From Armatimonadota bacterium (GTDB taxonomy: Bacteria > Sysuimicrobiota > Sysuimicrobiia > Sysuimicrobiales > Kaftiobacteriaceae), in assembly GCA_031459765.1 (NCBI GenBank), contig JAVKHY010000001.1:285701-349700 (forward strand): DNA of 64,000 nucleotides, written 5' to 3'. Shown piece after piece: positions 2,276 to 26,604 of this stretch; the stretch's first letter is position 1; the number at the start of each line of letters is the position of its first letter. A program made the translations under genes and the position numbers. Below the pieces are notes generated by a model that saw only the letters and a list, made by a program, of their open reading frames with translations, had not been told where the DNA came from and did not search any database.

Positions 2276-4723
<2,448 letters not shown>

Positions 4724-4728
4724 CCGTG

Positions 4729-5394: not shown

Positions 5395-5409
5395 CCGGGA
5401 GCCGCGTCG

Positions 5410-6276: not shown

Positions 6277-6341
6277 CAACGGAGACGAATCCCGCTACAA
6301 TGGGGGTGACGCGCAACCGGCGACGTGCGCCGTGATGGGCG

Positions 6342-7049: not shown

Positions 7050-7066
7050 TGGGAAGGGGTGGAGCG

Positions 7067-7297: not shown

Positions 7298-7321
7298 GAC
7301 GTTCGCAGGATAGATCGTCGG

Positions 7322-7753: not shown

Positions 7754-7754
7754 A

Positions 7755-9902: not shown

Positions 9903-10940
9903 ATGGAGAGAGCCAGGCCTTCTGAAGCGCTGCGGGTGTCGGTTGTGGTCCTGCTCGGCGTGGCACTGGCGCTGGGGCTGGCCGCCGTACCGTCTACGGC
10001 GCAGGCCTATCCCGAGCGCAACATCATCGGCATCATTCAATGGGGCGCCGGAGGAACTACGGACCGGGTGTCGCGGAAGGTGGCTCCCCTGGCCGATCGC
10101 CTGCTCGGCCAGCGGATCGTCCTGAACAACATGACCGGGGCCAGCGGCGCGACAGGCATGCAGTACGTCTACGACCAGCCGGCGGACGGCTACACCCTGC
10201 TGTTCGCCGCCGAGAACCCGACGCTATACGGCATCCTGGACATTTCGCCGCGCAACTTCGACGAGTTCATTCCCATCAACCTGTTCGCCCGCAGCATCCC
10301 GGTGATCGTTGTGCGCAGCGACTCGAAGTACCGCTACCTCGACGACTTGATCCGCGATGCCAGGCAGCGCCCCGGCCAGATCAAGGCCGGCGGTACGGGT
10401 ATCGGCGGCGTGCCCTTTGTCGTCGGGGCCATGATGACCGCGGTCAGCGGCGTGAAGTTCAACACGATCCCCTTCGACGGCGATGGGCCGGCGCTGGCCG
10501 CCCTCCTCGGGGGGCATATCGACTTCCACGTCTCGGTTCTGTCGGCGGCGGCGGAGCATATGCGGGCCGGCCGCATGCGGGCGATCGCGGTCGTAGACAA
10601 CGTGCCGAACTTCGGCGCGCCCGGGGTCCCCGCCCTGGGACAGATGATCCCCCAGTACCGCTCCTACCTCCCGTGGGGACCGTTCTTCGGGGTATGGGTC
10701 AAGAAGGGGACCCCCGCTCCGGCCGTGGCCAAGCTCACCGAGGCCTTCAAGGCGGCGGTCGGGAGCGAAGAGTTCAAGGAGTTCGCCGAGTTGTTGGGCG
10801 CGGTTCCCTTGAACCTCTCCGGGGACGAGGCCATGCGGTTCGTGAAGCAGTGGCAGTCCGTCACCGCGTGGCTGCTTTATGACGCCGGCGCGGCGAAGAA
10901 GTCGCCCCAGGCGTTCGGGATCCCGCGCCCGTCCAGGTAG
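9903..10940 (+). CDS. tctC: tripartite tricarboxylate transporter substrate-binding protein (TctC/Bug family)
   Basis: 345-residue periplasmic-type binding protein of a tripartite tricarboxylate transporter (TTT). The N-terminus is a signal peptide: basic residues, a hydrophobic core at about residues 13-30, then a cleavage site near STAQA. The mature part begins YPERNI and has the family motif WGAGGTTDR, with the later GTGIGG and GDGPALAALLGG stretches typical of Bug proteins. It presents a carboxylate substrate to the TctAB membrane pair. GGGAGG sits before the ATG. It heads an operon continuing into tctB and tctA. The ligand cannot be read from the sequence. Confidence 0.9.
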   Translation: MERARPSEALRVSVVVLLGVALALGLAAVPSTAQAYPERNIIGIIQWGAGGTTDRVSRKVAPLADRLLGQRIVLNNMTGASGATGMQYVYDQPADGYTLLFAAENPTLYGILDISPRNFDEFIPINLFARSIPVIVVRSDSKYRYLDDLIRDARQRPGQIKAGGTGIGGVPFVVGAMMTAVSGVKFNTIPFDGDGPALAALLGGHIDFHVSVLSAAAEHMRAGRMRAIAVVDNVPNFGAPGVPALGQMIPQYRSYLPWGPFFGVWVKKGTPAPAVAKLTEAFKAAVGSEEFKEFAELLGAVPLNLSGDEAMRFVKQWQSVTAWLLYDAGAAKKSPQAFGIPRPSR

Positions 10941-10941
10941 C

Positions 10942-11388
10942 GTGGCGGGGGACCCGACAGGGGCAGCCCTGCGGGCCCGGTTGTCGGCCCGCCTGCAAGC
11001 CGCAGGCGTCGCGGCCCTGGGTGTGTTTGTCTTCGAACGGGCGAGCCGGATGACCAACTTCTGGTCGGATCCCGGCTCGCCCGGGCTCTTTCCTGCCCTG
11101 GTCGCCGCGGTCTTCATCATCTGCGCCGTGGCCATCTGGCGCCAGGGACCGCCGGAGGATGATCCCGGGTCGGTATCGGTCTGGGCCATCCTCTACGCCC
11201 TGATGGTGGTGGCCTACGGGGCGCTGCTCAAGCCGGTCGGCTATATCGGGGCGTCCATCGCCTTCCTGCTGGTATCGTTCCTGTGGCTGCGCGCCATGCC
11301 GTGGTGGAAGTCCATCCTCGTGGCCGTGGTGGCTACGGGGATCACGTTCGCGGTGTTCCGCTACCTGTTCATCGTCATCCTGCCGTAG
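10942..11388 (+). CDS. tctB: tripartite tricarboxylate transporter small membrane subunit TctB
   Basis: 148 residues with four hydrophobic segments, the size and topology of the small TctB subunit. It has the FWSDPGSPGLFPAL segment seen in this family between TM1 and TM2. A GTG at 10942, just after the tctC stop, gives a normal-length N-terminus; an upstream ATG at 10879 would overlap tctC by 62 nt and is less likely. It forms the integral membrane complex with TctA. Confidence 0.85.
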   Translation: MAGDPTGAALRARLSARLQAAGVAALGVFVFERASRMTNFWSDPGSPGLFPALVAAVFIICAVAIWRQGPPEDDPGSVSVWAILYALMVVAYGALLKPVGYIGASIAFLLVSFLWLRAMPWWKSILVAVVATGITFAVFRYLFIVILP

Positions 11389-11421
11389 GAGGGCGGGCCG
11401 ATCGATCTGGCGCTGCAGGTC

Positions 11422-12930
11422 TTGAAGGAGTTCCTCTCCCCGGGGAATATTGCCCTGTCCGCGGTGGGCGTGGTCGCGGGCATTCTGGTCGGTGCGACAC
11501 CGGGCCTCAGCGTGACGATGGCCGTCGCCCTGCTGGCCTCGATGACCTACTCCTGGGACACGAAGACCGCCCTGGCGTTGATGCTCGGGGTGTATGCGGG
11601 CGGGGTGTATGGAGGATCTCGATCCTCCATCTTGATCAACATTCCGGGTACGCCCTCCGCCCTGGCCACTTCCTTCGACGGTCACCCGATGGCCTTGAGG
11701 GGCGAGGCGGGCCTGGCCATCGGTGTGGCTACCGTCCAGTCCGTCATCGGCGGCTTCATCGGGCTCATTACCCTGATCCTCGCCGCCCCGCCGATCTCGG
11801 AACTGGCGTTGAAGTTTGCGCCGCGGGACTACTTCTTGTTGGTGGCGATGGGGCTGTCGCTGACCGGCCGCCTGGCCGGGGGGTCGCTGGCCAGGTCCAT
11901 GGTGGGGGCGGCGCTGGGCGTCCTGGTCGGGTTGATCGGGATGGACCCGATTACCGGTGAGGGCCGCTTCACGTTCGGCCAGCCGCTGCTCATCAACGGC
12001 GTCCACTTCATCGCCGCGGTCATCGGGCTGTTCGGCGTGTCGGAAGTGATCTATCAACTCGGCCGGATCGGCCGGAGTACGGCGCCGCAGGCCAGGATCG
12101 CGGAGGTCGGGGGCGTCTTCCCGGGGTTCCGCCACTTCTTCAAATACCTCCCCGTCACCATCCGCGCCTCGGTGATCGGCGTCATCGTCGGAGCGCTGCC
12201 CGGCGCCGGCGGGGACATCGCGGCCCTTCTGGCTTACGCCGACGCCAAACGGTGGGTAAAGAAACCGTCGCGCCCCTTCGGCCAGGGCGCGGTGGAGGGT
12301 GTCGTCGCCCCGGAGACGGCGAACAACGCCTGCATCGGCGGGGACATGATCCCGATGCTCACCCTGGGGATCCCCGGCGATGCCGTGACCGCGGTGCTCA
12401 TCAGCGTCCTGTTCATCCATGGGCTGCGGCCCGGGCCGTTGCTCATGGTGGAGCAGCGGGACCTTTTCTGGTTCATCGCCGGATCCTACGGACTGGCCAA
12501 CATCTTTCTCTTCGTCTTCGGCCTGCTGGCGGTGCGCCCGTTCGTCAAAGTGGTCAACATCGACAAGCGGATCCTGATGCCCCTGATCGTGCTGATCTCC
12601 GTTGTGGGCACCTACGCCATCCAGAACAACATCTATGACGTCTTCTGGATGATCGGGTTCGGTGTGCTGGGCTACTTCATGAAGCTGGGCGGCTATCCGG
12701 TGGGTCCTATGGTCCTGGGGGTCATCCTCGGGCCGCTGGCCGACATCAACTTCCGCCGGGCCATGCTCGCGGTCCAGGGCAACGTTCCCCTGTTCTTGTG
12801 GGAGATGGTCAGTCATCCCATCAGCTTGGTGTTGACCCTCATCCTGCTCTCGGCCTTCGTCCCGAGCGTCTCTTTCGCCGGGGTCAGGAATTGGATTCGG
12901 CTCCGACGGATGCGAAGGGAGGTCGCGTGA
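11422..12930 (+). CDS. tctA: tripartite tricarboxylate transporter large permease TctA
   Basis: Large permease subunit (about 502-509 residues, roughly 12 TM). Family motifs are present: VGATPGLSVTMAVALL near the N-terminus, YGGSRSSILINIPGTPSA, and GALPGAGGDIAAL in the second half. The first conventional start is TTG at 11422. The reading frame is open back to the tctB stop, and the seven upstream codons encode a typical TctA beginning (x-DLALQVL). The strong AGGAGGG at 11387-11393 is ideally spaced for an ATC at 11401, which may be the true initiator. The aldehyde dehydrogenase ATG overlaps its TGA. Confidence 0.88.
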   Translation: MKEFLSPGNIALSAVGVVAGILVGATPGLSVTMAVALLASMTYSWDTKTALALMLGVYAGGVYGGSRSSILINIPGTPSALATSFDGHPMALRGEAGLAIGVATVQSVIGGFIGLITLILAAPPISELALKFAPRDYFLLVAMGLSLTGRLAGGSLARSMVGAALGVLVGLIGMDPITGEGRFTFGQPLLINGVHFIAAVIGLFGVSEVIYQLGRIGRSTAPQARIAEVGGVFPGFRHFFKYLPVTIRASVIGVIVGALPGAGGDIAALLAYADAKRWVKKPSRPFGQGAVEGVVAPETANNACIGGDMIPMLTLGIPGDAVTAVLISVLFIHGLRPGPLLMVEQRDLFWFIAGSYGLANIFLFVFGLLAVRPFVKVVNIDKRILMPLIVLISVVGTYAIQNNIYDVFWMIGFGVLGYFMKLGGYPVGPMVLGVILGPLADINFRRAMLAVQGNVPLFLWEMVSHPISLVLTLILLSAFVPSVSFAGVRNWIRLRRMRREVA

Positions 12931-14417: not shown

Positions 14418-14429
14418 GAGGGGTGAGAC

Positions 14430-14825
14430 GTGGGCGTCAGGGCGCAGCCCGGGATCAGAGTGGTCCGGACGTACGCGGAGGGGAAGGCCTACTGGATCGG
14501 CCTGGACAATCCGGGATTCCGCCGCAAGGTCTTCCGCACGGTGGACAGGGAACTGTGCGGCTCGGAGCACATGGTGGCGGGGATCACCGTCTTCCCTCAG
14601 GGAGAGGCCAGCTCGCTGCACAGCCATCCCGAGTCCGAGGAGATCAACGTCGTCCTGGCGGGGCACGGGGAAGTGGTCGGCGCCGACGGCTCGCGGCAGT
14701 CCTTCGGTCCCCACGACATGATGTTCGTGCCCAAGGGCCTGCCGCACCAACACGTCAACACCGGCGCCGAGCCGCTCGTGCTGCTGTGGTGCTACACGCC
14801 GCCGGGAGAAAATCCGACCAGGTGA
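14430..14825 (+). CDS. cupin-domain protein
   Basis: 131 residues forming a single cupin barrel. The metal-binding motif 1 is LHSHPESEEINVVLAG (two His and a Glu) and motif 2 around PKGLPHQHVN supplies a further His. Such proteins can be isomerases, dioxygenases or ligand sensors. Starts at GTG with AGGAGGGG upstream, 12 nt after the ALDH gene. The precise role in the operon is unknown. Confidence 0.8.
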   Translation: MGVRAQPGIRVVRTYAEGKAYWIGLDNPGFRRKVFRTVDRELCGSEHMVAGITVFPQGEASSLHSHPESEEINVVLAGHGEVVGADGSRQSFGPHDMMFVPKGLPHQHVNTGAEPLVLLWCYTPPGENPTR

Positions 14826-14906
14826 GGGGGCCGGAGCATCACGCCGTTCCGTCTCGCTGCCAGACGACCGGTCAAGGTCGGCCAACACCTGCTGGGCGGG
14901 CCGACG

Positions 14907-15635
14907 GTGCTCACCTGCGTGCCCTTGACGGCGCGCGATCGCTCCGCGCTGGTCGACCAGGCCCGTGCGCTGGCTGCGCTCCGGCCCGACTGCATCGAGT
15001 GGCGCGCCGACTTCGTGGCTGACCTGGTTCCCGCCGACGTCCCGGTGCTGCTCCGCGATATGGCCGCGGCCGCCCCTGTCCCGCTGATCGTCACCAACCG
15101 CCTGGCCGCCGAGGGCGGGCACAGGGTCCAGGACGAGGATCACCGGGTGGCCATCCTCACCGCGGCGGCGGCGACCGGCATCCCCGCCCTCGTGGATCTG
15201 GAACTGGCCACCGCCCCGCCGCTGGCCGAGCGCGTCGCGGCGGCGGCCGGGCAAGCCGGCGTGGCGGTGATCCGGTCCTGGCACGACTTCAGCGCCACCC
15301 CTCCCGTGCCGACGCTGCTGGGGACGCTCCGGACGATGCAGAGCGCCGGCGCGGCCGTGGCGAAGGTCGCGGTCACCCCCCGCACGCCGGAGGATGTGCT
15401 CGCCCTGCTCACCGCCGGCCTGGAGGCGCGCCGCACGTTCCTGGAGATCCCCTGCATCCTGATGTCCATGGGCGCGCTGGGCGCGGTGAGCCGCTTCGCC
15501 GGACACTTCGGATCCGACCTGACGTTCGCGGTGGGCCTGGAAGCCTCAGCCCCCGGGCAGATGGACCTGGAGCTGACGCGCCGGGGCTTGCAGGCGCTGG
15601 GTCTGGCCGGTGACTCCGGAGAGGAGAGGCCGTGA
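14907..15635 (+). CDS. aroD: type I 3-dehydroquinate dehydratase
   Basis: Class I dehydroquinase, converting 3-dehydroquinate to 3-dehydroshikimate through a Schiff base. All family residues are visible: EWRAD, the TNRLAAEGG segment (Arg and Glu), the base His in SWHDF, the Schiff-base Lys in AVAKVAVTP, the Arg of VSRFAG and the Ser/Gln of SAPGQ. The first conventional start is GTG at 14907. However, the frame is open upstream and encodes VKVGQHLLGGP, which matches the normal N-terminal strand of the family, so the true start is probably further up. ATC at 14838, after GAGGGGG, is a candidate. Placement between a cupin gene and a dehydrogenase gene in a catabolic operon is unusual. Confidence 0.88.
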   Translation: MLTCVPLTARDRSALVDQARALAALRPDCIEWRADFVADLVPADVPVLLRDMAAAAPVPLIVTNRLAAEGGHRVQDEDHRVAILTAAAATGIPALVDLELATAPPLAERVAAAAGQAGVAVIRSWHDFSATPPVPTLLGTLRTMQSAGAAVAKVAVTPRTPEDVLALLTAGLEARRTFLEIPCILMSMGALGAVSRFAGHFGSDLTFAVGLEASAPGQMDLELTRRGLQALGLAGDSGEERP

Positions 15636-16660
15636 CGCTGATGCGGGCCGCACGCCTCCACGCCCCCCGCACGGTTCGGGTGGATCGTCTTCCTCCGCCC
15701 GTGCCGCAGGCCGGCGAGGTGCTGGTGTCCATCGAGCGCGTCGGGGTGTGCGGCAGCGACGTACACCTGTTCCAGGGGCACCGCACGGCGCCCTATCCCA
15801 TCATCATGGGGCACGAGGGGCTGGGACGGATCGCCGCCGTGGGCCCCGGCGTGGCCGCCGAGCGCGTGGGCCAGCGCGTCGTCCTCGAGCCCAACGTGCC
15901 CTGCGGGAGATGCCCCTGGTGCCGGCGCGGCCGCGGCGCGATCTGCCCCGACAAGCGCTCCCTGGGCGTGAACGTGCCCGGCGTGCTGGCCGAGTACGCG
16001 ACCCTGCCCGCCACCCACGCCTGGGCCATCCCCGAGACGCTCTCCTGGCGGGACGCGGTGCTCATCGAACCCCTCGCCGTGGCCGTCCACGCCGTCGCGG
16101 TGTCCGGGCTGGTGCCGGGCGACGCCGCCCTGGTCCTGGGGTGCGGCACCATCGGCCTGGTCCTGACGCGCCTGCTGGCCGGCATGGGCGTCCGCGTCTG
16201 CGCCATCGATCTGGATGAGCGACGGGTGGAGGCCGCACGACGCGCCGGAGCCGCCGAGACGGTGGTGGTGTCCCGCGAGGACGCGCCGGGGCTCGCCCGC
16301 CGTGTCCAGGCCGGGGCTGCCTGGCCGGTGATCTTTGAGTCCTCCGGCACGGCCTCCGGGGCGGGCTGGTGTCTGGAGGCGGTACCGCGGGGGGGCACCG
16401 TGGTCCTGCTGGGACTGGCCACCGACCCCGTGTCCCTGCAACCCCTGCGCCTCGTGCGCGAGGGGATCACCATCACCGGCTCGATCATCTACGACCACCC
16501 CGATGATTTCCGCCGGGCGATCGGCCTGGTGACCGGTAGCGGGACGCTGCGGCTCGGCGATCTGGTCGAGTCCGAATTTCCCCTCGACGCCGTGGAGGAT
16601 GCCCTGCAGGCCGCCGGAGGGATGCTGGCGGGGAAAGCCGTGGTGCGGGTCGCCGGTTGA
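15632..16660 (+). CDS. zinc-dependent alcohol/polyol dehydrogenase (MDR family)
   Basis: 342-residue medium-chain dehydrogenase. Catalytic zinc ligands lie in GVCGSDVH and GHEGLG. The structural-zinc lobe has four Cys in CGRCPWC...C (about residues 90-110). The Rossmann fold begins at VLGCGTIGLV. It resembles sorbitol/threonine dehydrogenases. GTG at 15632 overlaps the aroD stop and has GGAGAGG 6 nt upstream; an ATG at 15641 is possible. The substrate is unknown. With aroD beside it, a cyclic polyol acid such as quinate or shikimate is one option, which is speculation. Confidence 0.82.
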   Translation: MTLMRAARLHAPRTVRVDRLPPPVPQAGEVLVSIERVGVCGSDVHLFQGHRTAPYPIIMGHEGLGRIAAVGPGVAAERVGQRVVLEPNVPCGRCPWCRRGRGAICPDKRSLGVNVPGVLAEYATLPATHAWAIPETLSWRDAVLIEPLAVAVHAVAVSGLVPGDAALVLGCGTIGLVLTRLLAGMGVRVCAIDLDERRVEAARRAGAAETVVVSREDAPGLARRVQAGAAWPVIFESSGTASGAGWCLEAVPRGGTVVLLGLATDPVSLQPLRLVREGITITGSIIYDHPDDFRRAIGLVTGSGTLRLGDLVESEFPLDAVEDALQAAGGMLAGKAVVRVAG

Positions 16661-16671
16661 GGTGATACAGG

Positions 16672-18399
16672 ATGGGAGCCAAACCTCACAATGTCGCCCA
16701 CCAGATCGTGCGGTTCCTGGAGGCGATCGGAACCAGATACGTCTTCGGCCTCTGCGGGCACACCGTGATCGCGCTGCTGGACGCCTTCCGGGACAGCCCG
16801 ATCCGGTTCGTGATGAACCGGCATGAGCAGATCGCCGCGCACATGGCCGACGGCTATGCCCGTGCCTCCGGCGAGTGCGGGGTGCTGCTGACCCATGTCG
16901 GACCGGGCCTGACCAACGCCGTCACCGGAGTGGCCAACGCGGCGTTGGACTCCGTCCCGCTGCTCGTCATCGCCGGCGATGTCCCGGCATACTTCTTCGG
17001 CCGCCACCCGCACCAGGAAGTTCAGGTCCACAACGATGGCGATCAGTCCGCCATCTACCGACCCTTCGTGAAGCGCGTCTGGCGCGTAACGCAGCCCAGG
17101 GGGCTGGCCAGGATCCTGGAACGCGCCTACCTGCTCGCCACCAGCGGCCGTCCCGGCCCGGTGCTTGTGGACGTGGCCATGGACGTCCTGTCCCGTCCGG
17201 CGGAAGATCCCGACCCCCAGGCTCCGCGCCCGGCGGCGCGTCCGGGGCTGGACCCGGGGACGGCCCGCCGGATCGCCGAACGCCTGCTGGCGGCCCGACG
17301 GCCCGTGATCTATGTGGGCGGCGGCGTCATCAGCTCGGACGGCGCAGAAGAGCTCGCGCGGGTTGCCGAGCACCTCAACGCCCCCGTGGCCTACTCCCTG
17401 ATGGGAAAGGGCGCGATCCCGGACGACCACCCGCTGGTGCTCGGGATGACCGGATTCTGGGGGACGGACCTGACGAACCGCGTGACGCGGCAGGCCGATG
17501 TGCTCCTGGCCGTGGGAACCCGGTTCGCCGAGGCCGACGCCAGTTCGTGGGATGCGAGATTCACCTTCGCCATCCCGCCCACGGAGCTGATCCACATCGA
17601 TGTCGATCCGGCCGAGCTCGGCCGGTCCTTCCCGGTGACGATCGGAGCCGTTGCCGACGCCCGGGCGGCCCTGCGGGCAATCCTGGAAGCGCTGGTGGAG
17701 GCGGCGCCGCGCGGAGGTCGCGGACACGCCGACCTGGCGGCGATCCAGGCCGAGCGTGCCAAGTGGCGGGAGAGCCTTGTCGGGCCGATGCGGTCGGAGG
17801 CATACCCGCTCGCCCCCCAGCGCATCCTGGCCGAGGTGCGGGCCGCCCTGCCCAGGGACGGGATCCTGGTGACGGACGTCGGCTGGAACAAGAACGGCGT
17901 GGGGCAGCAGTTTCCCATCTATTTCCCACGGACGCACCTGACTCCGGGAGGGCTGGCCACGATGGGGTTCGGCCCGGCCGCCGTCCTGGGCGCCAAGCTG
18001 GCGAAACCCGAGCGCGCCTGCGTGGCGATGGTCGGGGATGGGGCGTTCAGCGCCAATCCCTCCGTGCTGGCGACGGCGGTGGAGCAGGGCATCAACGTCA
18101 CGTGGGTGGTCATGAACAACTCCGCGCATGGGACGATTGCCGGGCTCATGAGCCAGCACTTCGGCCACACCCTGGGCTGCGAGTTCCGCCGGCAGGGGGA
18201 GGCGTACTCGCCCGATTTCGCCGCCGTGGCCCGAGCCTACGGGGCAGACGGCGTGCACATCGAGCGCGCCGGGGATCTGGCCCCCGCTCTGGGACGGGCC
18301 CTGCAGGGCCACCGGCCCACGGTCCTGGACGTGCCGATGACCAATGATCCGGTGCCGACCGGGGGCCACTGGGACATCAACGACATCTACCAATGGTAG
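16672..18399 (+). CDS. thiamine-diphosphate-binding enzyme (acetolactate-synthase-like)
   Basis: 575 residues with the three-domain layout of the ThDP decarboxylase/synthase superfamily. The catalytic Glu is E52 in NRHEQ. The central nucleotide-like domain spans about residues 185-330. The C-terminal ThDP motif starts at G455-D456-G457 and ends in the Asn pair of VVMNN about 23 residues later. It acts on a 2-oxo acid, decarboxylating it or transferring the aldehyde unit. It is not obviously IlvB: no small subunit gene is adjacent and the neighbours are catabolic. It starts 11 nt after the dehydrogenase gene. Confidence 0.82.
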   Translation: MGAKPHNVAHQIVRFLEAIGTRYVFGLCGHTVIALLDAFRDSPIRFVMNRHEQIAAHMADGYARASGECGVLLTHVGPGLTNAVTGVANAALDSVPLLVIAGDVPAYFFGRHPHQEVQVHNDGDQSAIYRPFVKRVWRVTQPRGLARILERAYLLATSGRPGPVLVDVAMDVLSRPAEDPDPQAPRPAARPGLDPGTARRIAERLLAARRPVIYVGGGVISSDGAEELARVAEHLNAPVAYSLMGKGAIPDDHPLVLGMTGFWGTDLTNRVTRQADVLLAVGTRFAEADASSWDARFTFAIPPTELIHIDVDPAELGRSFPVTIGAVADARAALRAILEALVEAAPRGGRGHADLAAIQAERAKWRESLVGPMRSEAYPLAPQRILAEVRAALPRDGILVTDVGWNKNGVGQQFPIYFPRTHLTPGGLATMGFGPAAVLGAKLAKPERACVAMVGDGAFSANPSVLATAVEQGINVTWVVMNNSAHGTIAGLMSQHFGHTLGCEFRRQGEAYSPDFAAVARAYGADGVHIERAGDLAPALGRALQGHRPTVLDVPMTNDPVPTGGHWDINDIYQW

Positions 18400-19151
18400 C
18401 GGGCAGAGGCTGGACCGGAACAGGACGAAAGGCGGGCGTCGCGGCGGTGGACCGGGCGCTGACGGTCCTGACGGTGTTTCGCGAGGGCGACGTCACCCTG
18501 ACCCTGGCTGAGATCGCCGAGCGTACCGGCATGTACAAGAGCACCATCCTGCGGCTGTGCGAGTCGCTGGCCCGCCACGGCTACCTGTACCGTGTCGACG
18601 GCGCAGGGTACCGGTTGGGCCCCACCCCGCTGCGTCTGGCCAGCCTGTACCAGCGGTCGTTCCGGGTGGGGGACCTCGTGGTGCCGATGTTGCAGAGACT
18701 GGTCCGGCAGACCGGCGAGAGCGCATCTTTCTACGTACGCGAGCAGGGCGTGCGTGTCTGCCTCCATCGCGTGGACTCCCCCCGGGCCATCCGCGATCAC
18801 GTGCGCGAGGGAGACCACCTGCCGCTGGACCGGGGCGCCGCCGGACGGGTGCTGCTGGCCTTCAGCGGAGAGCCCGGGGAGGTGTATGCGCGGATCCGCC
18901 GTCGGTATGTCGCGGCCACCTTCGGCGAGCGCGATCGTGAGACCGCCGCAGTGGCCGCTCCGGTCTTCCGGCTCGGTCAGGAACTGGTCGGTGCGCTGTC
19001 GGTCTCCGGCCCCATCTACCGGTTCCGGGGCAGGGCCGCAGAACGGATTGCGGCCCTGGTCCTGGCCGCTGCGGCGGAGCTGACGGCCGATCTCGGCGGT
19101 GATCGCCGACCCTTCGACGAAAGGATTGTCCGTCGTGGACGCACCGCTTGA
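18393..19151 (+). CDS. IclR-family transcriptional regulator (tct operon)
   Basis: 252 residues. The N-terminal winged helix-turn-helix reads LTLAEIAERTGMYKSTILRL at about residues 35-54. The IclR effector domain follows, with EGDHLPLDRGAAGRVLLA and a C-terminal GALSVSGP strand typical of the family. The ATG overlaps the end of the ThDP-enzyme gene by 7 nt. It probably controls this operon in response to the imported acid or a metabolite. The palindrome at 9807-9821 is a candidate site. Confidence 0.85.
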   Translation: MVAGRGWTGTGRKAGVAAVDRALTVLTVFREGDVTLTLAEIAERTGMYKSTILRLCESLARHGYLYRVDGAGYRLGPTPLRLASLYQRSFRVGDLVVPMLQRLVRQTGESASFYVREQGVRVCLHRVDSPRAIRDHVREGDHLPLDRGAAGRVLLAFSGEPGEVYARIRRRYVAATFGERDRETAAVAAPVFRLGQELVGALSVSGPIYRFRGRAAERIAALVLAAAAELTADLGGDRRPFDERIVRRGRTA

Positions 19152-20337
19152 GGGCGTCCGCGTCCTCGACCTCACCAATGTGCTGGCGGGGCCCTTCTGC
19201 ACCTTCCAGCTGGCCCTGCTGGGCGCCGACGTCATCAAGGTCGAAGTCCCGGGCAGCGGGGATCTGGCCCGGCAACTGGGCGCTGATCCGGCCCTGAACC
19301 GCGCCCTGATGGGCGCGTCGTTCTTGGCTCAGAACGCCGGGAAGCGCTCGGTGACCATCAACCTGAAGGATCCCGACGGTCGGAAGGTGTTCGAACGGCT
19401 GGTCGTCACCGCCGACGTGCTGGTGGAGAACTTCCGGCCCGGGGTGATGGCCAGGCTCGGCCTGGGATACGACCGCCTCTCCACGCTCAATCCGGACCTC
19501 ATCTACTGCGCGATCTCCGGATTCGGCCAGGACGGCCCCCTCAGTGCCAATCCCGCTTACGATCAGATCATCCAGGGGCTGGCCGGAGTGATGGATGTCA
19601 CCGGCGACGAGCGGAGCGGGCCGCTGCGCGTGGGCTTTCCGGTCTGCGACACCGTGGGCGGGCTGGCTGCGGCCTTCGCCATCGTCAGCGCGTTGCGCCT
19701 GCGCCAGCGGGAAGGCCGGGGCTGCCTGCTGGACGTGTCGATGCTCGAGGCCACGTTGGTCAGCATGGGATGGGTGGTGTCCAACTACCTGATCGCGGGC
19801 GAAGTCCCCCGGCGGTCGGGCAACGAGAACTTCACCGCCAGTCCCTCGGGGACATTTCGGACCGGGGAAGGGCTGTTGAACATCGCCGCCAACAAGCAGG
19901 AGCAGTTCGAGGTCCTGTGTCGGGAAATCGGACGGCCGGACCTCGTCACCGATCCCCGGTTCGTGGACCGCGAAGCCCGCCTGCGTCACCGCAGGGAGCT
20001 GACGGCCGAGGTGGAGGCCGCCCTGGCCCGGCGTTCGGCGGCCGAGTGGGAGGAGCGGTTGAACAGAGTCGGCGTGCCGGCCGGGCGCGTCCTCTCCGTC
20101 CCCGAGGCCCTGGCCCATCCGCAGGTCACGGCCCGCCGCCTGGTGCAGTGCTTCGACAACGTTGCGGGCATCGGCCGGGATGTTGCGGTGACCACGACCG
20201 GTGTGATGCTCTCGGGCCGTCGACCGGAAGCCTCCACTCCCCCTCCGCGCCTGGGGGAGCACACGGACGAGGTGCTGCAGAGCCTGGGACTCACGGCGGA
20301 AGAGATCGCCGCGCTCCGGCGGAAAGGGGCGATATGA
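19135..20337 (+). CDS. class III CoA-transferase (CaiB/BaiF family)
   Basis: 400-residue family III CoA-transferase, moving CoA from a CoA thioester to a free carboxylate through an aspartyl-CoA anhydride. The N-terminal PLEGVRVLDLTNVLAGP motif is diagnostic. The catalytic Asp is D172 in VCDTVGGL, matching Asp169 of formyl-CoA transferase. GTG at 19135 with AAGGA 9 nt upstream is preferred; it lies inside the 3' end of the IclR gene. The stop overlaps the start of the citryl-CoA-lyase-like gene, so the two are likely to act in sequence: acid activation, then C-C cleavage. Confidence 0.87.
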   Translation: MDAPLEGVRVLDLTNVLAGPFCTFQLALLGADVIKVEVPGSGDLARQLGADPALNRALMGASFLAQNAGKRSVTINLKDPDGRKVFERLVVTADVLVENFRPGVMARLGLGYDRLSTLNPDLIYCAISGFGQDGPLSANPAYDQIIQGLAGVMDVTGDERSGPLRVGFPVCDTVGGLAAAFAIVSALRLRQREGRGCLLDVSMLEATLVSMGWVVSNYLIAGEVPRRSGNENFTASPSGTFRTGEGLLNIAANKQEQFEVLCREIGRPDLVTDPRFVDREARLRHRRELTAEVEAALARRSAAEWEERLNRVGVPAGRVLSVPEALAHPQVTARRLVQCFDNVAGIGRDVAVTTTGVMLSGRRPEASTPPPRLGEHTDEVLQSLGLTAEEIAALRRKGAI

Positions 20338-21155
20338 ACGAGCAGAGGCCTGACCCTGTTCAGGCCTGGTGGCGGACGGCCATTGTCGATATCGCGCCGG
20401 GGAGCATCCGCATCCGCGGCTATGCCATCGAGGACCTCATCGGCAACCTTGACTTTTCGTCGATGGTCTGGCTGATGCTGCGGGGCGAGGTGCCCACGAT
20501 GGCCCAGGCCCGGCTCCTCGAGGCCGCCCTGGTCGCCGCCGTGGATCACGGACCCCAGGCGCCGTCCATCGCCATCGCGCGGATGACGGCGACCTGCGGG
20601 GTGGCGCTGAACAGCGCTGTGGCCGCAGGGGTGAACGCCCTGGGCGATGTGCACGGGGGAGCCGGCCAGCAGTGCATGGAGCTCTATCGTGCCGTGGCCG
20701 GCAGGTGGGATGAGGGGATGCCCCTGGAGCGGGCCGTGGAGGCGGTTCTGGACGGGTTCGGCCCTGACGCCTACGTTCCGGGGTTCGGCCACCGGTTCCA
20801 CCCCGTTGACCCCCGGGCCGTGCGGCTCCTCCAGCTCGTCGGCCAGGCGGCCGATGCCGGGACAGTCTCCGGCCGATTTGCGCGCATTGCGCAGGCCGTG
20901 GAGGCGTTGCTGGAGAGGCGGGTCGGGCGGAGAATCCCCATGAATATCGACGGCGCCACGGCGGTGGTCTTCTGCGAACTGGACTTTCCGCCGGCCCTGG
21001 GCCGGGGCCTGTTCATCCTCTCTCGCGCCGTGGGCATCCTGGCGCACGCCTGGGAGCAGATGCTTCAAGGGGAGCGCATCAAGGGGCCCACCCCGCCGCG
21101 CGCCGGCTATACCTACGAAGGGGTTCCGCCTCGCCCCCTCCCTCCCCGGACGTAG
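20334..21155 (+). CDS. citryl-CoA-lyase-like protein (citrate synthase fold)
   Basis: 273 residues, far shorter than citrate synthase (about 370-430), but it keeps the fold's catalytic residues: H107 in GDVHGGAG, H153 in GFGHRFHPVDPRA and D206 in NIDGA. The late SRAVGILAHAWEQ helix is also present. Such short proteins are annotated as citryl-CoA lyase and cleave a 3-hydroxyacyl-CoA such as citryl-CoA to acetyl-CoA and a 2-oxo acid. The ATG overlaps the CoA-transferase stop (ATGA). With the upstream tricarboxylate transporter this suggests uptake, CoA activation and cleavage of a citrate-like acid. Exact substrate unproven. Confidence 0.78.
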   Translation: MNEQRPDPVQAWWRTAIVDIAPGSIRIRGYAIEDLIGNLDFSSMVWLMLRGEVPTMAQARLLEAALVAAVDHGPQAPSIAIARMTATCGVALNSAVAAGVNALGDVHGGAGQQCMELYRAVAGRWDEGMPLERAVEAVLDGFGPDAYVPGFGHRFHPVDPRAVRLLQLVGQAADAGTVSGRFARIAQAVEALLERRVGRRIPMNIDGATAVVFCELDFPPALGRGLFILSRAVGILAHAWEQMLQGERIKGPTPPRAGYTYEGVPPRPLPPRT

Positions 21156-21176
21156 GCCTGCCCCCGCCTGTGATGC

Positions 21177-21205
21177 TTGCGCTGCTCCCGCGGAGGGCCT
21201 AGGCT
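21177..21205 (+). promoter_or_regulatory. possible leaderless promoter before aroKB copy A
   Basis: TTGCGC at 21177-21182 and TAGGCT at 21200-21205 are 17 nt apart, and the ATG at 21213 follows the -10 by 7 nt, so RNA would start at or beside the A of ATG. The hexamers are weak matches. The proposal rests mainly on the same geometry being repeated before aroE. Confidence 0.3.
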
Positions 21206-21212
21206 AACGTTC

Positions 21213-22838
21213 ATGAGGAATATTGCGCTGATCGGGATGCCGGCGACGGGCAAGAGCGCCGTAGGGCGTCGCCTGGCGCTCACCTTGGGCCTTCCTTTCT
21301 TCGATACGGACGAGATGATCGAGAGCCGCGAGGACGCGTCCATCGCGGAGATCTTCGAGGCGCGCGGGGAGGCGTATTTCCGCAGCCTCGAGCAGGCGGT
21401 GATCAGCGAGGTGACCGGGCAGCCAGGTGTCGTGGCGACCGGCGGCGGCGTGGTGGAGCGGCCGGAGAACATGACGGCCCTCCGGGATTGGGGGTGGATC
21501 ATCGCCCTGGTCGCTCCTCCCGAGGTACTGGCGCGTCGAGTCGGTCGGGCCGACCAGTGGCCGCTGCTCAAGGGCGGAGTTGTTGAGAACCTGGAGCGAC
21601 TGTGGAAGCGGCGCGAGGCCGGCTATCGGACCGCGGATCTCGTCGTGGATGTCGCGGAAGAAGACGTGGACGAGGTGGTGCGGAGGATCCTCGAGTTTCT
21701 GGCCGAACGGGAGCCCACCGCAATCGTCACCGTCCATCCGCGCCATGCCCCGTCCTATCGGGCGATCGTGGGCGAGGGTGTGCGAGGGCTTGTCGGGCAC
21801 TACGCGCGGGACGCCGGTCTCCAGGGCCGCGCCGCGGTGTTGGTCTCTCCCGCCGCCGCCAGGTCGTCCGGGATTCAGCTCTGCGATGCTCTGCAAGGAG
21901 CCGGATTCTCACCCGTCCTGATCGAGATTCCCGCCGGAGAGAGTGCGAAGACGTGGGAATCCGTCGGCTGGCTTTGCGACAGACTGGTCCAGGAGCAGCT
22001 CGACCGGACCGGGTGTCTGGTAGCCATGGGCGGTGAGGAAACGCTGGACATCGGGGGATTCCTCGCCGCCACGTACATGCGCGGCATCCCCAGTGTTTAC
22101 CTGCCCACCACGTTGGTGGCCCAGCTCGACAGCTGCATCGGCGGTAAGGTGTCGCTCAACCACCCCCGCGCCAAGAATCTCATCGGGCTCCTCCACCATC
22201 CCCGGCTGGCCGTTGTTGACGTGCAACTGGCGCGGGCCGGGGGGGCCCGGGCGATGCGCGCAGGACTGGCCGAGGCCGTGAAGTACGGGGTCGTCGCCGA
22301 TGCCGGGCTGTTTCGTTTTCTGGAGGAACGGGCGGGCGATCTGCTCCGCGGTGAAGGTCTTGCCGAGCTCGTGGCGTGGTGCCTGCGCATCAAGGCCGCC
22401 ATTGTCGATGAAGATGAAGAAGGAACCGGACGCCGCCTGCTCCTCAACTACGGCCACACCTTCGCCCATGCCATCGAGGCCTCAACCGGGTTCCGCCGCT
22501 ACACCCACGGTGAAGCGGTCGCCATTGGGATGACTCTGGCCGCCCGGGTGGGATCGGCCATGGGCATCACCGCCGGATCCCTGGAAGACCGGCAGACCGC
22601 GCTCTTGCGTCGGCTGGGCCTGCCCTGCGACTTCTCGGGGGTGGCCACGGCACACCTCGTGGAGGCCCTGTGGCGCGACAAGAAGAAGCAGGGCGCCCGG
22701 TTGCGGTTTGTGCTGCCGACGGATCTCGGCAGCGGAGAGGTGCGCAGCGACGTCCCCATCGACCTCGTGGCCCGCGTTCTGAGCGAACACGGGGCCGCGG
22801 CCGAACGGGCCGACCGGGACGGCAGCGCACAGGTCTGA
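21213..22838 (+). CDS. shikimate kinase / 3-dehydroquinate synthase fusion, divergent copy A
   Basis: 541 residues: an N-terminal shikimate-kinase domain (about 1-170) fused to a dehydroquinate-synthase (DHQS) domain (about 175-541). The kinase P-loop is intact (GMPATGKS), as are DTD, the FR motif and G77-G78-G79, but the lid motif usually RPLL reads W116-P-L-L. The DHQS domain keeps the metal ligands (Glu in GLAEAVK, His in NYGHTFAH, His in THGEAV) and the catalytic Asp/Lys/Asn residues. The glycine-rich NAD loop, normally GGGVVGD, reads GGEETLD at 273-279. It may be a repurposed sugar-phosphate cyclase or a degenerate paralogue of copy B (24938-26518). No strong SD is present. Confidence 0.83.
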   Translation: MRNIALIGMPATGKSAVGRRLALTLGLPFFDTDEMIESREDASIAEIFEARGEAYFRSLEQAVISEVTGQPGVVATGGGVVERPENMTALRDWGWIIALVAPPEVLARRVGRADQWPLLKGGVVENLERLWKRREAGYRTADLVVDVAEEDVDEVVRRILEFLAEREPTAIVTVHPRHAPSYRAIVGEGVRGLVGHYARDAGLQGRAAVLVSPAAARSSGIQLCDALQGAGFSPVLIEIPAGESAKTWESVGWLCDRLVQEQLDRTGCLVAMGGEETLDIGGFLAATYMRGIPSVYLPTTLVAQLDSCIGGKVSLNHPRAKNLIGLLHHPRLAVVDVQLARAGGARAMRAGLAEAVKYGVVADAGLFRFLEERAGDLLRGEGLAELVAWCLRIKAAIVDEDEEGTGRRLLLNYGHTFAHAIEASTGFRRYTHGEAVAIGMTLAARVGSAMGITAGSLEDRQTALLRRLGLPCDFSGVATAHLVEALWRDKKKQGARLRFVLPTDLGSGEVRSDVPIDLVARVLSEHGAAAERADRDGSAQV

Positions 22839-22910: not shown

Positions 22911-23798
22911 ATGATCGCCCCGCGAGCCGGCCAAAAGGTAGTGGGCATCATTGGCGATCCGGTGGCCCACTCCCTTTCTCCCCGTATGCACACGGCTGCC
23001 TTTGAGGCGCTGGGGATAGACTGGCGTTTCGTCGCTTTCCGGGTTCCGCCCGAGCATCTGGAGGACGCCCTGCGGGGGATCCGGGCGCTCGGTCTGGCCG
23101 GCGTCAACGTCACCATCCCCCACAAGCAGGCTGTCACGACCCTTGTCGATGATCTCGACCCGACGGCCCGCGCCATCGGTGCCGTGAACACCGTGCGCGT
23201 GGAGGCCGACCGTCTCGTCGGCTACAACACCGACGCTCCGGGCCTGCTGGATGCCCTGGTGCGCGACGGCGGTCGGAGCCCCGCCGGTGCCCGTTGTCTC
23301 GTCCTTGGCGCGGGCGGCGCCGGTCGCAGCGCCGCGTTTGCCCTGGCCGGCGCCCGGGCGGCGTCGGTGGTGATCCTGAATCGGACAGCTTCGCGCGCGG
23401 ACGATGTGGCCGGACGGGTCGCCGACGCCCATCCGGCATGTTCGGTCCGGGCGGGGCCCCTCGACCCACGCACCGTCGCCCGGGCCGCGGAGGACGCCGA
23501 CGTGATCATTCAGGCGACCAGTGCGATGCTCGGCGTGGCGGCCGACGGCCGCGGTGAGACGCCCGCCTGGCTGTGCGCATTGGAGGGCGCGCTGCGTCCC
23601 GGGGTGACCGTCCTGGACATGGTCTACACACCGCCGCGGACGGCGCTGTTGGTCGCGGCGGCGAAGGCGGGGGCACGGATCGTGGACGGTCTGAGCATGC
23701 TGGTCTACCAGGGGGCACGGAGTTTCGAGCTGTGGACCGGCCTGCCCGCGCCCATTGCCGCCATGCGGCACGCTGTTGACGGCGTGGCCCGGCGCTGA
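22911..23798 (+). CDS. aroE: shikimate dehydrogenase (NADP+)
   Basis: 295 residues. Reduces 3-dehydroshikimate to shikimate. The substrate domain has [10 protein letters not shown], the catalytic K72 in NVTIPHKQA and D108 in YNTDAPG. The dinucleotide-binding [13 protein letters not shown] follows, then NRTASRADD, whose Asn-Arg-Thr suggests NADPH. An upstream ATG at 22899 lies inside the proposed -10 box and would not be transcribed, so 22911 is preferred. The stop overlaps the aroC ATG (TGATG). Confidence 0.92.
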
Positions 23799-24922
23799 TG
23801 GCGCTGCGCTTTCTCACTGCGGGAGAGTCCCACGGCCGGGCGCTCACGGCGATCCTCGAGGGGTTGCCGGCCGGCCTGGTGGTGAGCGTTGAGGAGATCA
23901 ACGCCCAGATGTCCCGGCGTCAGGTGGGCTACGGGCGCAGTCCCCGGATGAAGCTGGAAGCCGACCGGGTGGAAATCGTGTCCGGGCTGATGGGCGGGGA
24001 GACGATCGGCGCCCCCGTCGCCCTGCGGGTGGAAAATCGAGACGTGCGCCTGGACGAGCCTCCGCTGACGCGGCCGCGTCCCGGACACGCCGACCTGGCC
24101 GGCGCGATGAAATACGGCTTCCGCGACCTGCGGCGGGTGCTGGAGCGGGCGAGTGCGCGGGAGACCGCGGCCCGTGTGGCCGTCGGGGCGGTCTGCCGGG
24201 CGTTTTTGGGCGCCTTTGGTATTTCCATCTTCAGCCACGTCGTCGAGATCGGGTCCGTTGCGATCACCCAGCGCCCCCTGCGCTGGGAAGACATCCCGGG
24301 TGTGGCCGAGGGTTCGGATCTCCGCTGCGCGGATGCCGCGGCGGAAGCCAGGATGCGCGAGGCCATCGAGGCGGCCCGGAAGGCCGGGGATACCCTGGGT
24401 GGAGTATTCGAGGTTGTGGCCCTCGGCGTGCCGCCCGGCCTCGGCAGTTATGTGCACTGGGACAGAAAACTGGACGGACGACTCGCCCAGGCCGTGATGT
24501 CGATTCCCGCGGTAAAGGGCGTGGAAGTGGGGTCGGGGTTCGAAATGGCGCGCACTCCGGGTTCGCGCGCCCACGACGAAATCCGTTACCAGCCAGATCG
24601 GGGTTTCTTCCGTGAGACGAACCGGGCCGGGGGCATGGAGGGAGGCGTCACCAACGGCGAGCCGGTGGTGGTGCGGGGGGCCATGAAGCCGCTCTCCACG
24701 TTGATGGCCCCGCTCCTCTCGGTGGATCTGGAGACGAAGGCGCCTTCCCGCGGGGCCGTTGTGCGCAGCGATGTTTGCGCCGTGCCGGCCGCCGGTGTCG
24801 TGGCGGAAGCGATGGTCGCCTTCGTGCTGGCGGACGCCTTCCTCGAGAAGTTCGGGGGAGACACGATGGCCGATATCGGGGCGACCTACCGGGCGTACCG
24901 TTCCCGCCTCCGCGACCTGTGA
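23798..24922 (+). CDS. aroC: chorismate synthase
   Basis: 374-residue FMN-dependent enzyme that converts 5-enolpyruvylshikimate-3-phosphate to chorismate. Signature motifs are the N-terminal TAGESHG, the [12 protein letters not shown] and [10 protein letters not shown] segments, and the late [12 protein letters not shown] loop with its conserved glycines. The length matches the monofunctional bacterial form, which needs a separate flavin reductase. The ATG overlaps the aroE stop, and aroKB copy B follows after 15 nt. Confidence 0.95.
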
Positions 24923-24937
24923 TCGGCTCTCTCCTCG

Positions 24938-26518
24938 ATGCGTAACGTTGTCCTGATCGGCTTCATGGGCACGGGGAAGAGTGCGGTCGGGCAGATCCTC
25001 GCCCGCCGGCTCGGCTGGACCTTCGTGGACATCGACCGGCGCGCGGCGAGGCGGGAGCGGGCGACGGTCCCGCAGATCCTGGCCAGACACGGCGAGGGAT
25101 ACTTTCGGGACGTGGAAGCGCGGATCATTGCCGAGGTCGCCGGGCGGCGCGACCTCGTGATCGCGACCGGGGCCGGAGTCGTGCTCCGTCCCGAGAACAT
25201 GCGGCGTCTGCGCGCCAACGGATGGATCGTTTCACTGACGGCGCCCGTGGACGTGCTGCTGACCCGCCTCGGCGAGCGGCGGCCGTCGCTGGGCGGGGAT
25301 GCGCGCGGTGAGGTGGTGCGCCTGCTCGATCAGCGCCGGCCGCTGTATCGCGATGCGGATCTGATGATCGACGTTTCGGTGGCCACACCGGACCGTGTGG
25401 CCGATGCTGTGCTGGCCTTCCTGGGTCGGCGCGATCGCCGGACGGTCCCGGTGCATCTGTCCGGCCGCGACTATCCGGTCCACATCGGCGAGGGCATCCT
25501 GCCGTTGCTGCCCGTCGACCTCGCCGCGCTGGGGGCGGGACGGCGGGTGGCCGTGGTCACGCACCGTAGCGTCAGGCGATCCGCCGCGGGGGCCCTCCTG
25601 GGGGTGCTCCGGAGCCAGGGGTTCGAGGTCTCGGTGTTCGACGTGCCGGCCGGTGAGGGCTCGAAGAGCCTGGTTATGGTCGGGGCGCTCTGCACGCGGT
25701 TGGCCCGGGCCAGGGTGGACCGCCACAGCACGCTGCTGGCCGTCGGCGGCGGGGTGGTCGGAGATCTGGGCGGATTTGTCGCGGCAACGTACATGCGGGG
25801 CATCCGGCTGGTGCATGTCCCCACGACGCTGCTGGCCATGGTGGACAGCAGTATCGGGGGGAAGACTGGCGTCAACCACGCGGGGGTGAAGAACCTCGTC
25901 GGCGCCTTCTACCAGCCATCGGCCGTTGTCGCCGACGTCCGAACACTGCAGACTCTTCCAGAGCGAGAACTCCGAAGCGGGCTGGCCGAGGTGGTGAAGA
26001 CCGCCGTCGTCGGGGACGCCGATCTCTTCGAGTTCCTGGAGGACAACCTTGCCGCCGTACTCCGCCGGGAGCCGGATGCGTTGATTGAGGTCATTTCCCG
26101 CTGCGCCGCTTTCAAGGCCCGGGTGGTGGAAGCGGACGAAGCGGAGCGCGCCGAACGCCAGATCCTGAATTACGGCCACACCCTCGGGCACGCCGTCGAG
26201 GCGGCGGCGGGATTCCGGGGGCTGACCCACGGTGAGGCCGTGGCCATCGGGATGGCCCTGGAGGCCCGCCTGGCCCAGCGCCTCGGGCTGACGTCCGCGG
26301 CGACGGTCGAACGGCAGAACGCGCTGCTGGCCCGCATCGGACTTCCCGTCAGGCTGGGCCCGGTGAGTCGGGCCGCGGTGTGGCGGGCACTGGCCCTGGA
26401 CAAGAAGTCGAAGGACGGGGTGCTCCGCTGGCCGATGCTGGTAGGCATCGGTTCGGTGCGGCGCGAACAGGAAGTCCCGGAGGCCTTGCTGCGGGAGGTC
26501 ATCGGTGGCTCACGCTGA
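24938..26518 (+). CDS. aroKB: shikimate kinase / 3-dehydroquinate synthase fusion, canonical copy B
   Basis: 526 residues. The C-terminal DHQS domain is fully canonical: the NAD loop is G270-G-G-V-V-G-D276, followed by VDSSIGGKTGVNH and KNLVGAFYQP, with Glu in GLAEVVK and His in NYGHTLGH and THGEAV for metal. It should convert DAHP to dehydroquinate. The N-terminal kinase has an intact P-loop (GFMGTGKS), FR and RRP lid, but the shikimate-binding Gly triplet reads G78-A79-G80. Fusion in this order is known as AroKB. It is cotranscribed with aroC. Confidence 0.92.
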   Translation: MRNVVLIGFMGTGKSAVGQILARRLGWTFVDIDRRAARRERATVPQILARHGEGYFRDVEARIIAEVAGRRDLVIATGAGVVLRPENMRRLRANGWIVSLTAPVDVLLTRLGERRPSLGGDARGEVVRLLDQRRPLYRDADLMIDVSVATPDRVADAVLAFLGRRDRRTVPVHLSGRDYPVHIGEGILPLLPVDLAALGAGRRVAVVTHRSVRRSAAGALLGVLRSQGFEVSVFDVPAGEGSKSLVMVGALCTRLARARVDRHSTLLAVGGGVVGDLGGFVAATYMRGIRLVHVPTTLLAMVDSSIGGKTGVNHAGVKNLVGAFYQPSAVVADVRTLQTLPERELRSGLAEVVKTAVVGDADLFEFLEDNLAAVLRREPDALIEVISRCAAFKARVVEADEAERAERQILNYGHTLGHAVEAAAGFRGLTHGEAVAIGMALEARLAQRLGLTSAATVERQNALLARIGLPVRLGPVSRAAVWRALALDKKSKDGVLRWPMLVGIGSVRREQEVPEALLREVIGGSR

Positions 26519-26604
26519 CGTCAAGTGCGGTCCCGTACTTTCTCCGGGGACTGATTTCGAGCCGACGCCCATCGGTCGCGACGCGGTCGAGGTGCGCTAG
26601 TCCC

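What the first reader, a model, noticed from the sequence alone, without database searches (positions are those of the whole stretch)
22026..22049. Copy A DHQS domain lacks the glycine-rich NAD loop but keeps its catalytic residues
The canonical GGGVVGD (as in copy B, residues 270-276) is GGEETLD in copy A (273-279). Two glycines that line the NAD pyrophosphate are gone and two acidic residues are inserted. The metal ligands and the Asp, Lys and Asn residues that handle the substrate in DHQS are retained. DHQS depends on transient NAD oxidation, so copy A might use the cofactor differently, catalyse a different cyclase-like reaction, or act as a sensor.
Basis: partly seen in the sequence, partly recalled or inferred. 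Interest (0 to 1): 0.72.

Follow-up and report, generated by a model that had tools for sequence, protein, structure and literature searches.

The report
NAD-loop-less dehydroquinate synthase paralogue, actively conserved
One of two fused shikimate-pathway enzymes in this bacterium has a cyclase domain whose NAD-holding loop was replaced by two glutamates while its metal and substrate pocket was kept; the change is conserved in five relatives, came in with a 13-kb gene cluster probably for quinate/shikimate-type acids, and most likely marks a cyclase turned to a new, NAD-free job.

Summary
Copy A (21213-22838) is a shikimate kinase-DHQS fusion whose canonical GGGVVGD reads GGEETLD (22029-22049). 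It is not an error. Five orthologues (71-78% identity) all carry GGEE[TV][LI]D, the DNA pattern occurs in exactly those 6 of 386 genomes, and G275 is invariant in 79 other DHQS-family proteins. The 11 published metal/substrate pocket residues remain (His419 is Tyr in one orthologue). Further losses: residues 339-344 (a second NAD contact by recalled annotation) and Glu/Asp404. The domain evolves slowly (dN/dS 0.07-0.16, below canonical DHQS) after a long stem branch: repurposing, not decay. Copy A arrived in a 13.3-kb insertion with a type I dehydroquinase, TPP enzyme, CoA-transferase and citryl-CoA lyase; a related cluster on an Azoarcus plasmid carries quinate/shikimate genes. In all six genomes the cluster's dehydroquinase replaced the native type II enzyme. 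In five, copy A holds the only shikimate kinase. In none did its DHQS domain replace the native DHQS. Best reading: a metal-binding DHQS derivative that no longer makes dehydroquinate and acts NAD-free on, or senses, a dehydroquinate/quinate-like ligand. Catalyst versus sensor is open; no biochemistry was possible.

The parts
21213..22838 (+). Copy A: shikimate kinase - DHQS-like fusion, 541 aa
   Evidence: PF01202 136.8 bits, PF01761 110.8, PF24621 136; TIGR01357 aroB 290.8 bits, below its cut-off of 305
21213..21710 (+). Shikimate kinase domain of copy A
   Evidence: the only strong SK hit in five relatives
21558..21560 (+). Trp116 in the SK lid (RPLL -> WPLL), all six orthologues
   Evidence: the equivalent Arg117 of M. 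tuberculosis SK is called essential in PMC7144000
21726..22787 (+). DHQS-like domain of copy A
   Evidence: AlphaFold2 pLDDT 93.9; best PDB match 3okf, a DHQS, TM 0.92
22029..22049 (+). GGEETLD in place of the glycine-rich NAD loop GGGVVGD (aa 273-279)
22227..22244 (+). aa 339-344 LARAGG in place of canonical xLxTLP; 340, 343 and 344 are lost conserved columns
22272..22274 (+). Metal ligand Glu354
22422..22424 (+). Gly404, where 79 of 79 other family members have Glu or Asp
22455..22457 (+). Metal ligand His415
22506..22508 (+). Metal ligand His432
9903..12930 (+). TctC, TctB, TctA tripartite carboxylate transporter, start of the inserted cluster
   Evidence: conserved in L043 and (TctA) L044
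12798..14417 (+). Aldehyde dehydrogenase
14430..14825 (+). Small cupin
   Evidence: 77-83% identity in relatives
14907..15635 (+). Type I 3-dehydroquinase, the only dehydroquinase found in this genome
15632..16660 (+). Zinc polyol-type dehydrogenase
16672..18399 (+). TPP-dependent enzyme, acetolactate-synthase-like
18393..19151 (+). IclR-family regulator
19099..20337 (+). Class III CoA-transferase
20334..21155 (+). Citryl-CoA-lyase-like enzyme (NF004864, 425 bits against a cut-off of 261)
24938..26518 (+). Copy B: canonical SK-DHQS fusion (GGGVVGD), native to the lineage
   Evidence: (TIGR01357 370 bits)
26510..26595 (+). Relic of the native type II dehydroquinase between copy B and aroH
   Evidence: alignment with same-genus genomes G001 and G002, whose intact gene lies here

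Best explanation
Copy A's C-terminal domain is a DHQS derivative that has given up NAD-dependent dehydroquinate synthesis and been repurposed. It keeps the fold, the metal site and the pocket for a polyhydroxylated carboxylate/phosphate, but the loop that cradles the NAD pyrophosphate carries two glutamates and a second NAD-side loop and a conserved acidic residue are lost. It entered the genome in a 13-kb cluster that probably handles quinate/shikimate-type acids. It most likely binds a dehydroquinate/quinate-like ligand without redox chemistry: as a metal-dependent NAD-free lyase (for example retro-aldol opening of dehydroquinate, the reverse of the last DHQS step), or, somewhat less likely, as a ligand sensor coupled to the fused kinase. 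Shown here: the substitutions, their conservation, the selection pattern, the insertion and the pattern of gene replacement. Inferred: loss of NAD binding, the ligand, the reaction.
For: Loop change fixed in all six orthologues and absent elsewhere. All 11 published M. tuberculosis DHQS pocket residues conserved in copy A (residue list from PMC6262012). Of 66 columns at least 90% conserved in canonical DHQS, 56 are unchanged in all six; the 8 lost in all six are 275, 276, 278, 302, 329, 340, 343, 344. dN/dS of the domain 0.07-0.16 against 0.15-0.27 for canonical DHQS among the five family-f5 genomes. One 100/100 clade on a stem of 0.82 with short branches inside. Natural replacement test: the type I dehydroquinase co-occurs with copy A where native type II is gone or a relic; in five genomes copy A is the only SK and native DHQS persists without an SK domain; canonical DHQS is kept in 6 of 6. 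Same-genus G002 lacks exactly the insert. Related cluster in Azoarcus with shikimate dehydrogenase, dehydroquinase and two QuiC-like halves. PDB 6lk2, listed as DHQS with NAD and a ligand name truncated at 'chloroge', suggests a quinate ester can bind the pocket. In iron-ADH relatives the GGGS loop contacts the NAD(P) pyrophosphate (PMC5125639).
Against: No NAD-binding or activity data; atomic coordinates of the models were not available, so the clash of Glu275/276 with pyrophosphate is inferred. Several NAD-side residues remain (E243, K246, D279, T299, T300, K321), so weak or altered NAD binding is possible. The Azoarcus cluster has no SK-DHQS gene, so copy A is not a core part of that pathway. 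That the cluster acts on quinate/shikimate is inferred from neighbours. dN/dS values for distant pairs are near saturation.
Confidence: 0.55

Rival explanations
1. The domain is a catalytically dead scaffold, kept because DHQS dimerises: it holds the kinase in a dimer or pairs with canonical DHQS as a pseudo-subunit.
For: Fold and SSE order kept; a dead domain in a multi-domain shikimate enzyme backed up by a second enzyme is known in Candida albicans Aro1 (PMC9074039); His419 is Tyr in one orthologue.
Against: A scaffold would not need every metal and pocket residue conserved, nor a dN/dS lower than that of active DHQS.
Confidence: 0.2
2. Copy A is still an ordinary NAD-dependent DHQS that tolerates an altered loop.
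For: Pocket and metal residues intact; fold nearest to NAD-bound DHQS structures; aroB model score only slightly below cut-off; some NAD-side residues kept.
Against: G275 invariant in 79 of 79 others; acidic residue 404 lost; second loop lost; canonical DHQS retained in 6 of 6 genomes although the kinase or dehydroquinase was displaced.
Confidence: 0.14
3. The loop now accommodates a different nucleotide or cofactor, and the domain is still a redox cyclase.
For: Adenosine-side residues E243, K246, T299, T300 and Asp279 are kept.
Against: No precedent was found here for an acidic pair at this loop; residues 339-344 are lost too.
Confidence: 0.08
4. Sequencing or assembly error, or a decaying pseudogene.
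For: Multi-contig assemblies.
Against: Same motif in six genomes with synonymous variation, open frames, low dN/dS.
Confidence: 0.01

Closest known systems
3-Dehydroquinate synthase (AroB, EC 4.2.3.4; TIGR01357, PF01761 + PF24621)
   Same: Fold, metal ligands, substrate pocket residues, order-level ancestry
   Different: Glycine-rich NAD loop, 339-344 loop and acidic residue 404 lost; below the aroB family cut-off; does not replace native DHQS
Bifunctional AroK-AroB fusions (NF010627, NF010556)
   Same: Same domain order and length as copy B and most of the order
   Different: Kinase lid Arg -> Trp and altered DHQS loop; 253.6 and 202 bits against cut-offs of 565 and 560 (copy B also misses those cut-offs)
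Other sugar phosphate cyclases (EEVS/DDGS-type, 2-deoxy-scyllo-inosose synthase)
   Same: Same superfamily; also DHQS relatives with changed reactions
   Different: Those examined keep GGG; copy A keeps the DHQS pocket residues that they change
Dead DHQase domain of Candida albicans Aro1 backed by Dqd1 (PMC9074039)
   Same: One domain of a shikimate multi-enzyme apparently unable to do its step, with a second enzyme covering
   Different: There the active site is substituted; here the pocket is intact and under strong selection
Quinate/shikimate utilisation gene clusters (QuiC-type), e.g. Azoarcus sp. KH32C pAZKH
   Same: IclR, CoA-transferase, citryl-CoA lyase, TPP enzyme and type I dehydroquinase shared
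   Different: Azoarcus has shikimate dehydrogenase and QuiC-like halves, no SK-DHQS; here Zn-dehydrogenase, cupin and Tct transporter

Membership tests
3-dehydroquinate synthase (AroB) | DHQS fold and Pfam domains | tested here: met
   PF01761 110.8 bits, PF24621 136 bits; TM 0.92 to 3okf
3-dehydroquinate synthase (AroB) | Curated aroB cut-off, TIGR01357 at least 305 bits | tested here: not met
   290.8 bits; copy B 370
3-dehydroquinate synthase (AroB) | Glycine-rich NAD loop GGGxxxD | tested here: not met
   GGEE[TV][LI]D in 6 of 6; G at 275 in 79 of 79 others
3-dehydroquinate synthase (AroB) | Three metal ligands Glu, His, His | tested here: met
   E354, H415, H432 kept in all
3-dehydroquinate synthase (AroB) | Substrate pocket residues listed for Mt/Sa DHQS | tested here: met
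   11 of 11 in copy A; H419 is Tyr in G020
3-dehydroquinate synthase (AroB) | Acidic residue four before the pocket Arg (recalled as A. nidulans Glu260) | tested here: not met
   Gly404 in 6 of 6; E/D in 79 of 79 others
3-dehydroquinate synthase (AroB) | Supplies DHQS to the organism | tested here: inconclusive
   Canonical DHQS retained in all six genomes, which speaks against it; genomic inference, not an assay
3-dehydroquinate synthase (AroB) | NAD-dependent DAHP to dehydroquinate activity | not testable with these tools
   needs purified protein
EEVS / DDGS / DOI synthase | Sequence and loop grouping with these cyclases | tested here: not met
   Copy A groups with the order's DHQS (100/97); two S7P cyclases and a DOIS keep GGG; the cyclases were compared by alignment, not placed in the tree
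Shikimate kinase (N-terminal domain) | PF01202 domain with Walker A and the R58/R136 equivalents | tested here: met
   136.8 bits; alignments
Shikimate kinase (N-terminal domain) | Lid arginine (Mt Arg117) | tested here: not met
   Trp116 in 6 of 6
Shikimate kinase (N-terminal domain) | Acts as the cell's shikimate kinase | tested here: inconclusive
   Only SK candidate in five genomes; no assay
Quinate/shikimate utilisation cluster | Genes for hydroaromatic acid interconversion plus transporter and regulator | tested here: inconclusive
   Type I dehydroquinase, dehydrogenase, IclR, Tct present; Azoarcus counterpart; substrate unknown

The most novel reading that the evidence does not exclude
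A DHQS-derived, metal-dependent, NAD-free enzyme (for example a dehydroquinate ring-opening lyase) fused to a modified shikimate kinase, working in an undescribed quinate/shikimate-acid pathway in which a TPP enzyme cleaves the ring to a citrate-like acid that a CoA-transferase and citryl-CoA lyase split to acetyl-CoA and a 2-oxo acid.
Probability: 0.18. Interest if true: 0.85.

Novelty: new variant of a known kind. Interest (0 to 1): 0.58.

Why it matters
DHQS is the textbook enzyme that uses NAD transiently inside one turnover. A natural, strongly conserved relative with the metal and substrate pocket intact but the NAD loop replaced lets one ask which DHQS steps need only the metal and pocket. 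It also marks a conserved cluster that displaced native shikimate-pathway genes and may encode an undescribed route for quinate/shikimate-type acids.

Tried and rejected
Error or pseudogene: rejected by six orthologues and low dN/dS. EEVS/DOIS-type cyclase: loop and placement do not fit. SK relic upstream of the standalone DHQS in four relatives: none above shuffled controls. Archaeal-type shikimate kinase as an alternative: no hit over the cut-off. Relatives outside the order: none close in a peptide-pattern scan of the genome-contig collection, in plasmids or in 386 genomes by motif. Relaxed selection on copy B's SK in this genome: dN/dS not raised, although three conserved features are hit. 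Papers on a quinate route using citryl-CoA lyase: none found in the open-access library. Second glycine (278) as an NAD determinant: weak, as it varies in canonical relatives. Coordinates of the AlphaFold models were not available, so no docking.

Full report
CHECK. Copy A (21213-22838, 541 aa) and copy B (24938-26518, 526 aa) are both shikimate kinase-DHQS fusions. Copy A reads GGEETLD at aa 273-279 (nt 22029-22049), copy B GGGVVGD at 270-276. The finding's start is one codon early, and the acidic residues are substitutions, not insertions. Copy A misses the aroB equivalog cut-off (290.8 against 305 bits) while copy B passes at 370.

CONSERVATION. Searching 100 relatives gave five orthologues of copy A at 71-78% identity, all in one other family of the same order. 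All carry GGEE[TV][LI]D; Glu275 and Glu276 are kept with synonymous codon changes at 276. A degenerate DNA pattern for the motif hits exactly these six among 386 genomes, with no hit for the reversed control. Among 79 other DHQS-family sequences, including two sedoheptulose-7-phosphate cyclases and one DOI synthase, position 275 is always Gly; the table's single E is copy A itself under a second name. The lost glycine at 278 is less telling, since T, C or L occur in canonical relatives.

WHAT IS LOST AND KEPT. Of 66 columns at least 90% conserved in canonical DHQS, 56 are unchanged in all six copy-A proteins, two are mixed (418, 419) and eight are lost in all six: 275, 276, 278, 302, 329, 340, 343, 344. 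By annotation recalled from UniProt/HAMAP (not re-checked here), 274-276 and 339-342 correspond to NAD-contact segments; the equivalent GGGS loop of iron-dependent alcohol dehydrogenases contacts the NAD(P) pyrophosphate (PMC5125639). Position 404, E/D in 79 of 79 others, is Gly in all six; I recall it as A. nidulans Glu260. All 11 pocket residues given for M. tuberculosis DHQS in PMC6262012 map to identical residues in copy A; His419 is Tyr in one orthologue. The six also replace the kinase lid arginine by Trp116, although the equivalent Arg117 is called essential in PMC7144000.

STRUCTURE. AlphaFold2 models of the two DHQS domains are confident (mean pLDDT 93.9 and 92.9) with matching secondary structure, and in both the helix starts right after the second glycine. 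The best solved matches of copy A are canonical DHQS, TM about 0.92.

SELECTION AND HISTORY. The copy A DHQS domain has dN/dS 0.07-0.16, against 0.15-0.27 for canonical DHQS compared among the five family-f5 genomes (counting method, distant pairs near saturation). Copy A forms one clade (100/100) on a stem of 0.82, beside all native DHQS of the order. Many changes on the stem followed by slow evolution suggests a new function rather than decay.

THE CLUSTER. Same-genus genome G002 is collinear with window 3423-9645 and 22938-26509 and lacks what lies between, so about 13.3 kb was inserted upstream of aroE. The insert carries TctCBA, aldehyde dehydrogenase, cupin, type I dehydroquinase, Zn-dehydrogenase, TPP enzyme, IclR, CoA-transferase, citryl-CoA lyase and copy A. 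The TPP enzyme and dehydroquinase occur at high similarity in exactly the same six of 43 genomes of the order as copy A, and the gene order from cupin to copy A is largely shared.

A NATURAL REPLACEMENT TEST. Relatives have a type II dehydroquinase; the six copy-A genomes have none intact. In this genome its 5' end survives as a relic between copy B and aroH, and G034 has two fragments. In the five other copy-A genomes the kinase of copy A is the only strong SK, no archaeal-type SK passes its cut-off, and the native DHQS stands alone, nested among fusions. So cluster enzymes took over the dehydroquinase step in all six and probably the kinase step in five, yet canonical DHQS was kept in 6 of 6. 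The simplest reading is that copy A's DHQS domain cannot make dehydroquinate well enough to replace it.

WHAT IT MAY DO. A counterpart cluster on the Azoarcus sp. KH32C plasmid has IclR, CoA-transferase, citryl-CoA lyase and TPP enzyme next to shikimate dehydrogenase, type I dehydroquinase and two proteins matching separate parts of the QuiC dehydroshikimate dehydratase model. Related IclR/CoA-transferase/lyase/ALDH/TPP sets occur in Streptomyces and Nonomuraea. I therefore think the cluster handles quinate/shikimate-type acids. Quinate has the tertiary alcohol-carboxylate of citrate; ring cleavage by the TPP enzyme could give a citrate-like acid for the CoA-transferase and citryl-CoA lyase. 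This is chemistry by inference. In that setting the copy A pocket would meet dehydroquinate or quinate. The last DHQS step is an intramolecular aldol needing no NAD, so a retro-aldol on dehydroquinate is possible, as is a sensing role; a review (PMC7144000) reports that the last steps may be largely spontaneous, which weakens the lyase idea. The Azoarcus cluster lacks an SK-DHQS gene, so copy A is an addition, not a core part.

VERDICT. Observation confirmed; first reading partly supported. It is a DHQS-family member by descent and fold, but it fails three defining features of DHQS tested here (family cut-off, NAD loop, residue 404) and should not be filed as a DHQS. New variant of a known kind.

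Noticed in passing
window 9903-22838: A 13-kb inserted cluster (Tct transporter, type I dehydroquinase, TPP enzyme, CoA-transferase, citryl-CoA lyase) found in 6 of 43 genomes of the order; candidate undescribed pathway for quinate/shikimate-type acids.
   Followed up: partly
window 26510-26595: Relic of the native type II dehydroquinase; intact in same-genus genomes G001 and G002.
   Followed up: yes
window 21558-21560: Shikimate kinase lid arginine replaced by Trp in all six copy-A proteins, although in five genomes this is the only shikimate kinase.
   Followed up: partly
window 24938-25430: Copy B's kinase domain has GGG->GAG, RPLL->RPSL and a two-residue lid deletion not seen in siblings; possible early decay, but dN/dS is not raised.
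   Followed up: partly
L139:6834-15466: Azoarcus sp. KH32C plasmid cluster with separate proteins matching the two parts of QuiC, beside CoA-transferase, citryl-CoA lyase and TPP enzyme.
   Followed up: partly
L045:6292-7566, L047:4657-5931, L048:16908-18182, L050:5749-7035: EPSP synthase in four copy-A genomes is only 32-33% identical to the window's aroA although neighbouring aroC is about 70%; possible replacement of aroA.
   Followed up: no
L048:5189-6601: Alkaline phosphatase gene lies between citryl-CoA lyase and copy A in G013; L046 and L049 have a similar gap there, not annotated.
   Followed up: no
L043:16352-19054: In G020 the cluster lies between aroC and the native DHQS, with copy A ending about 40 bp before a DHQS that lacks its kinase domain.
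   Followed up: no
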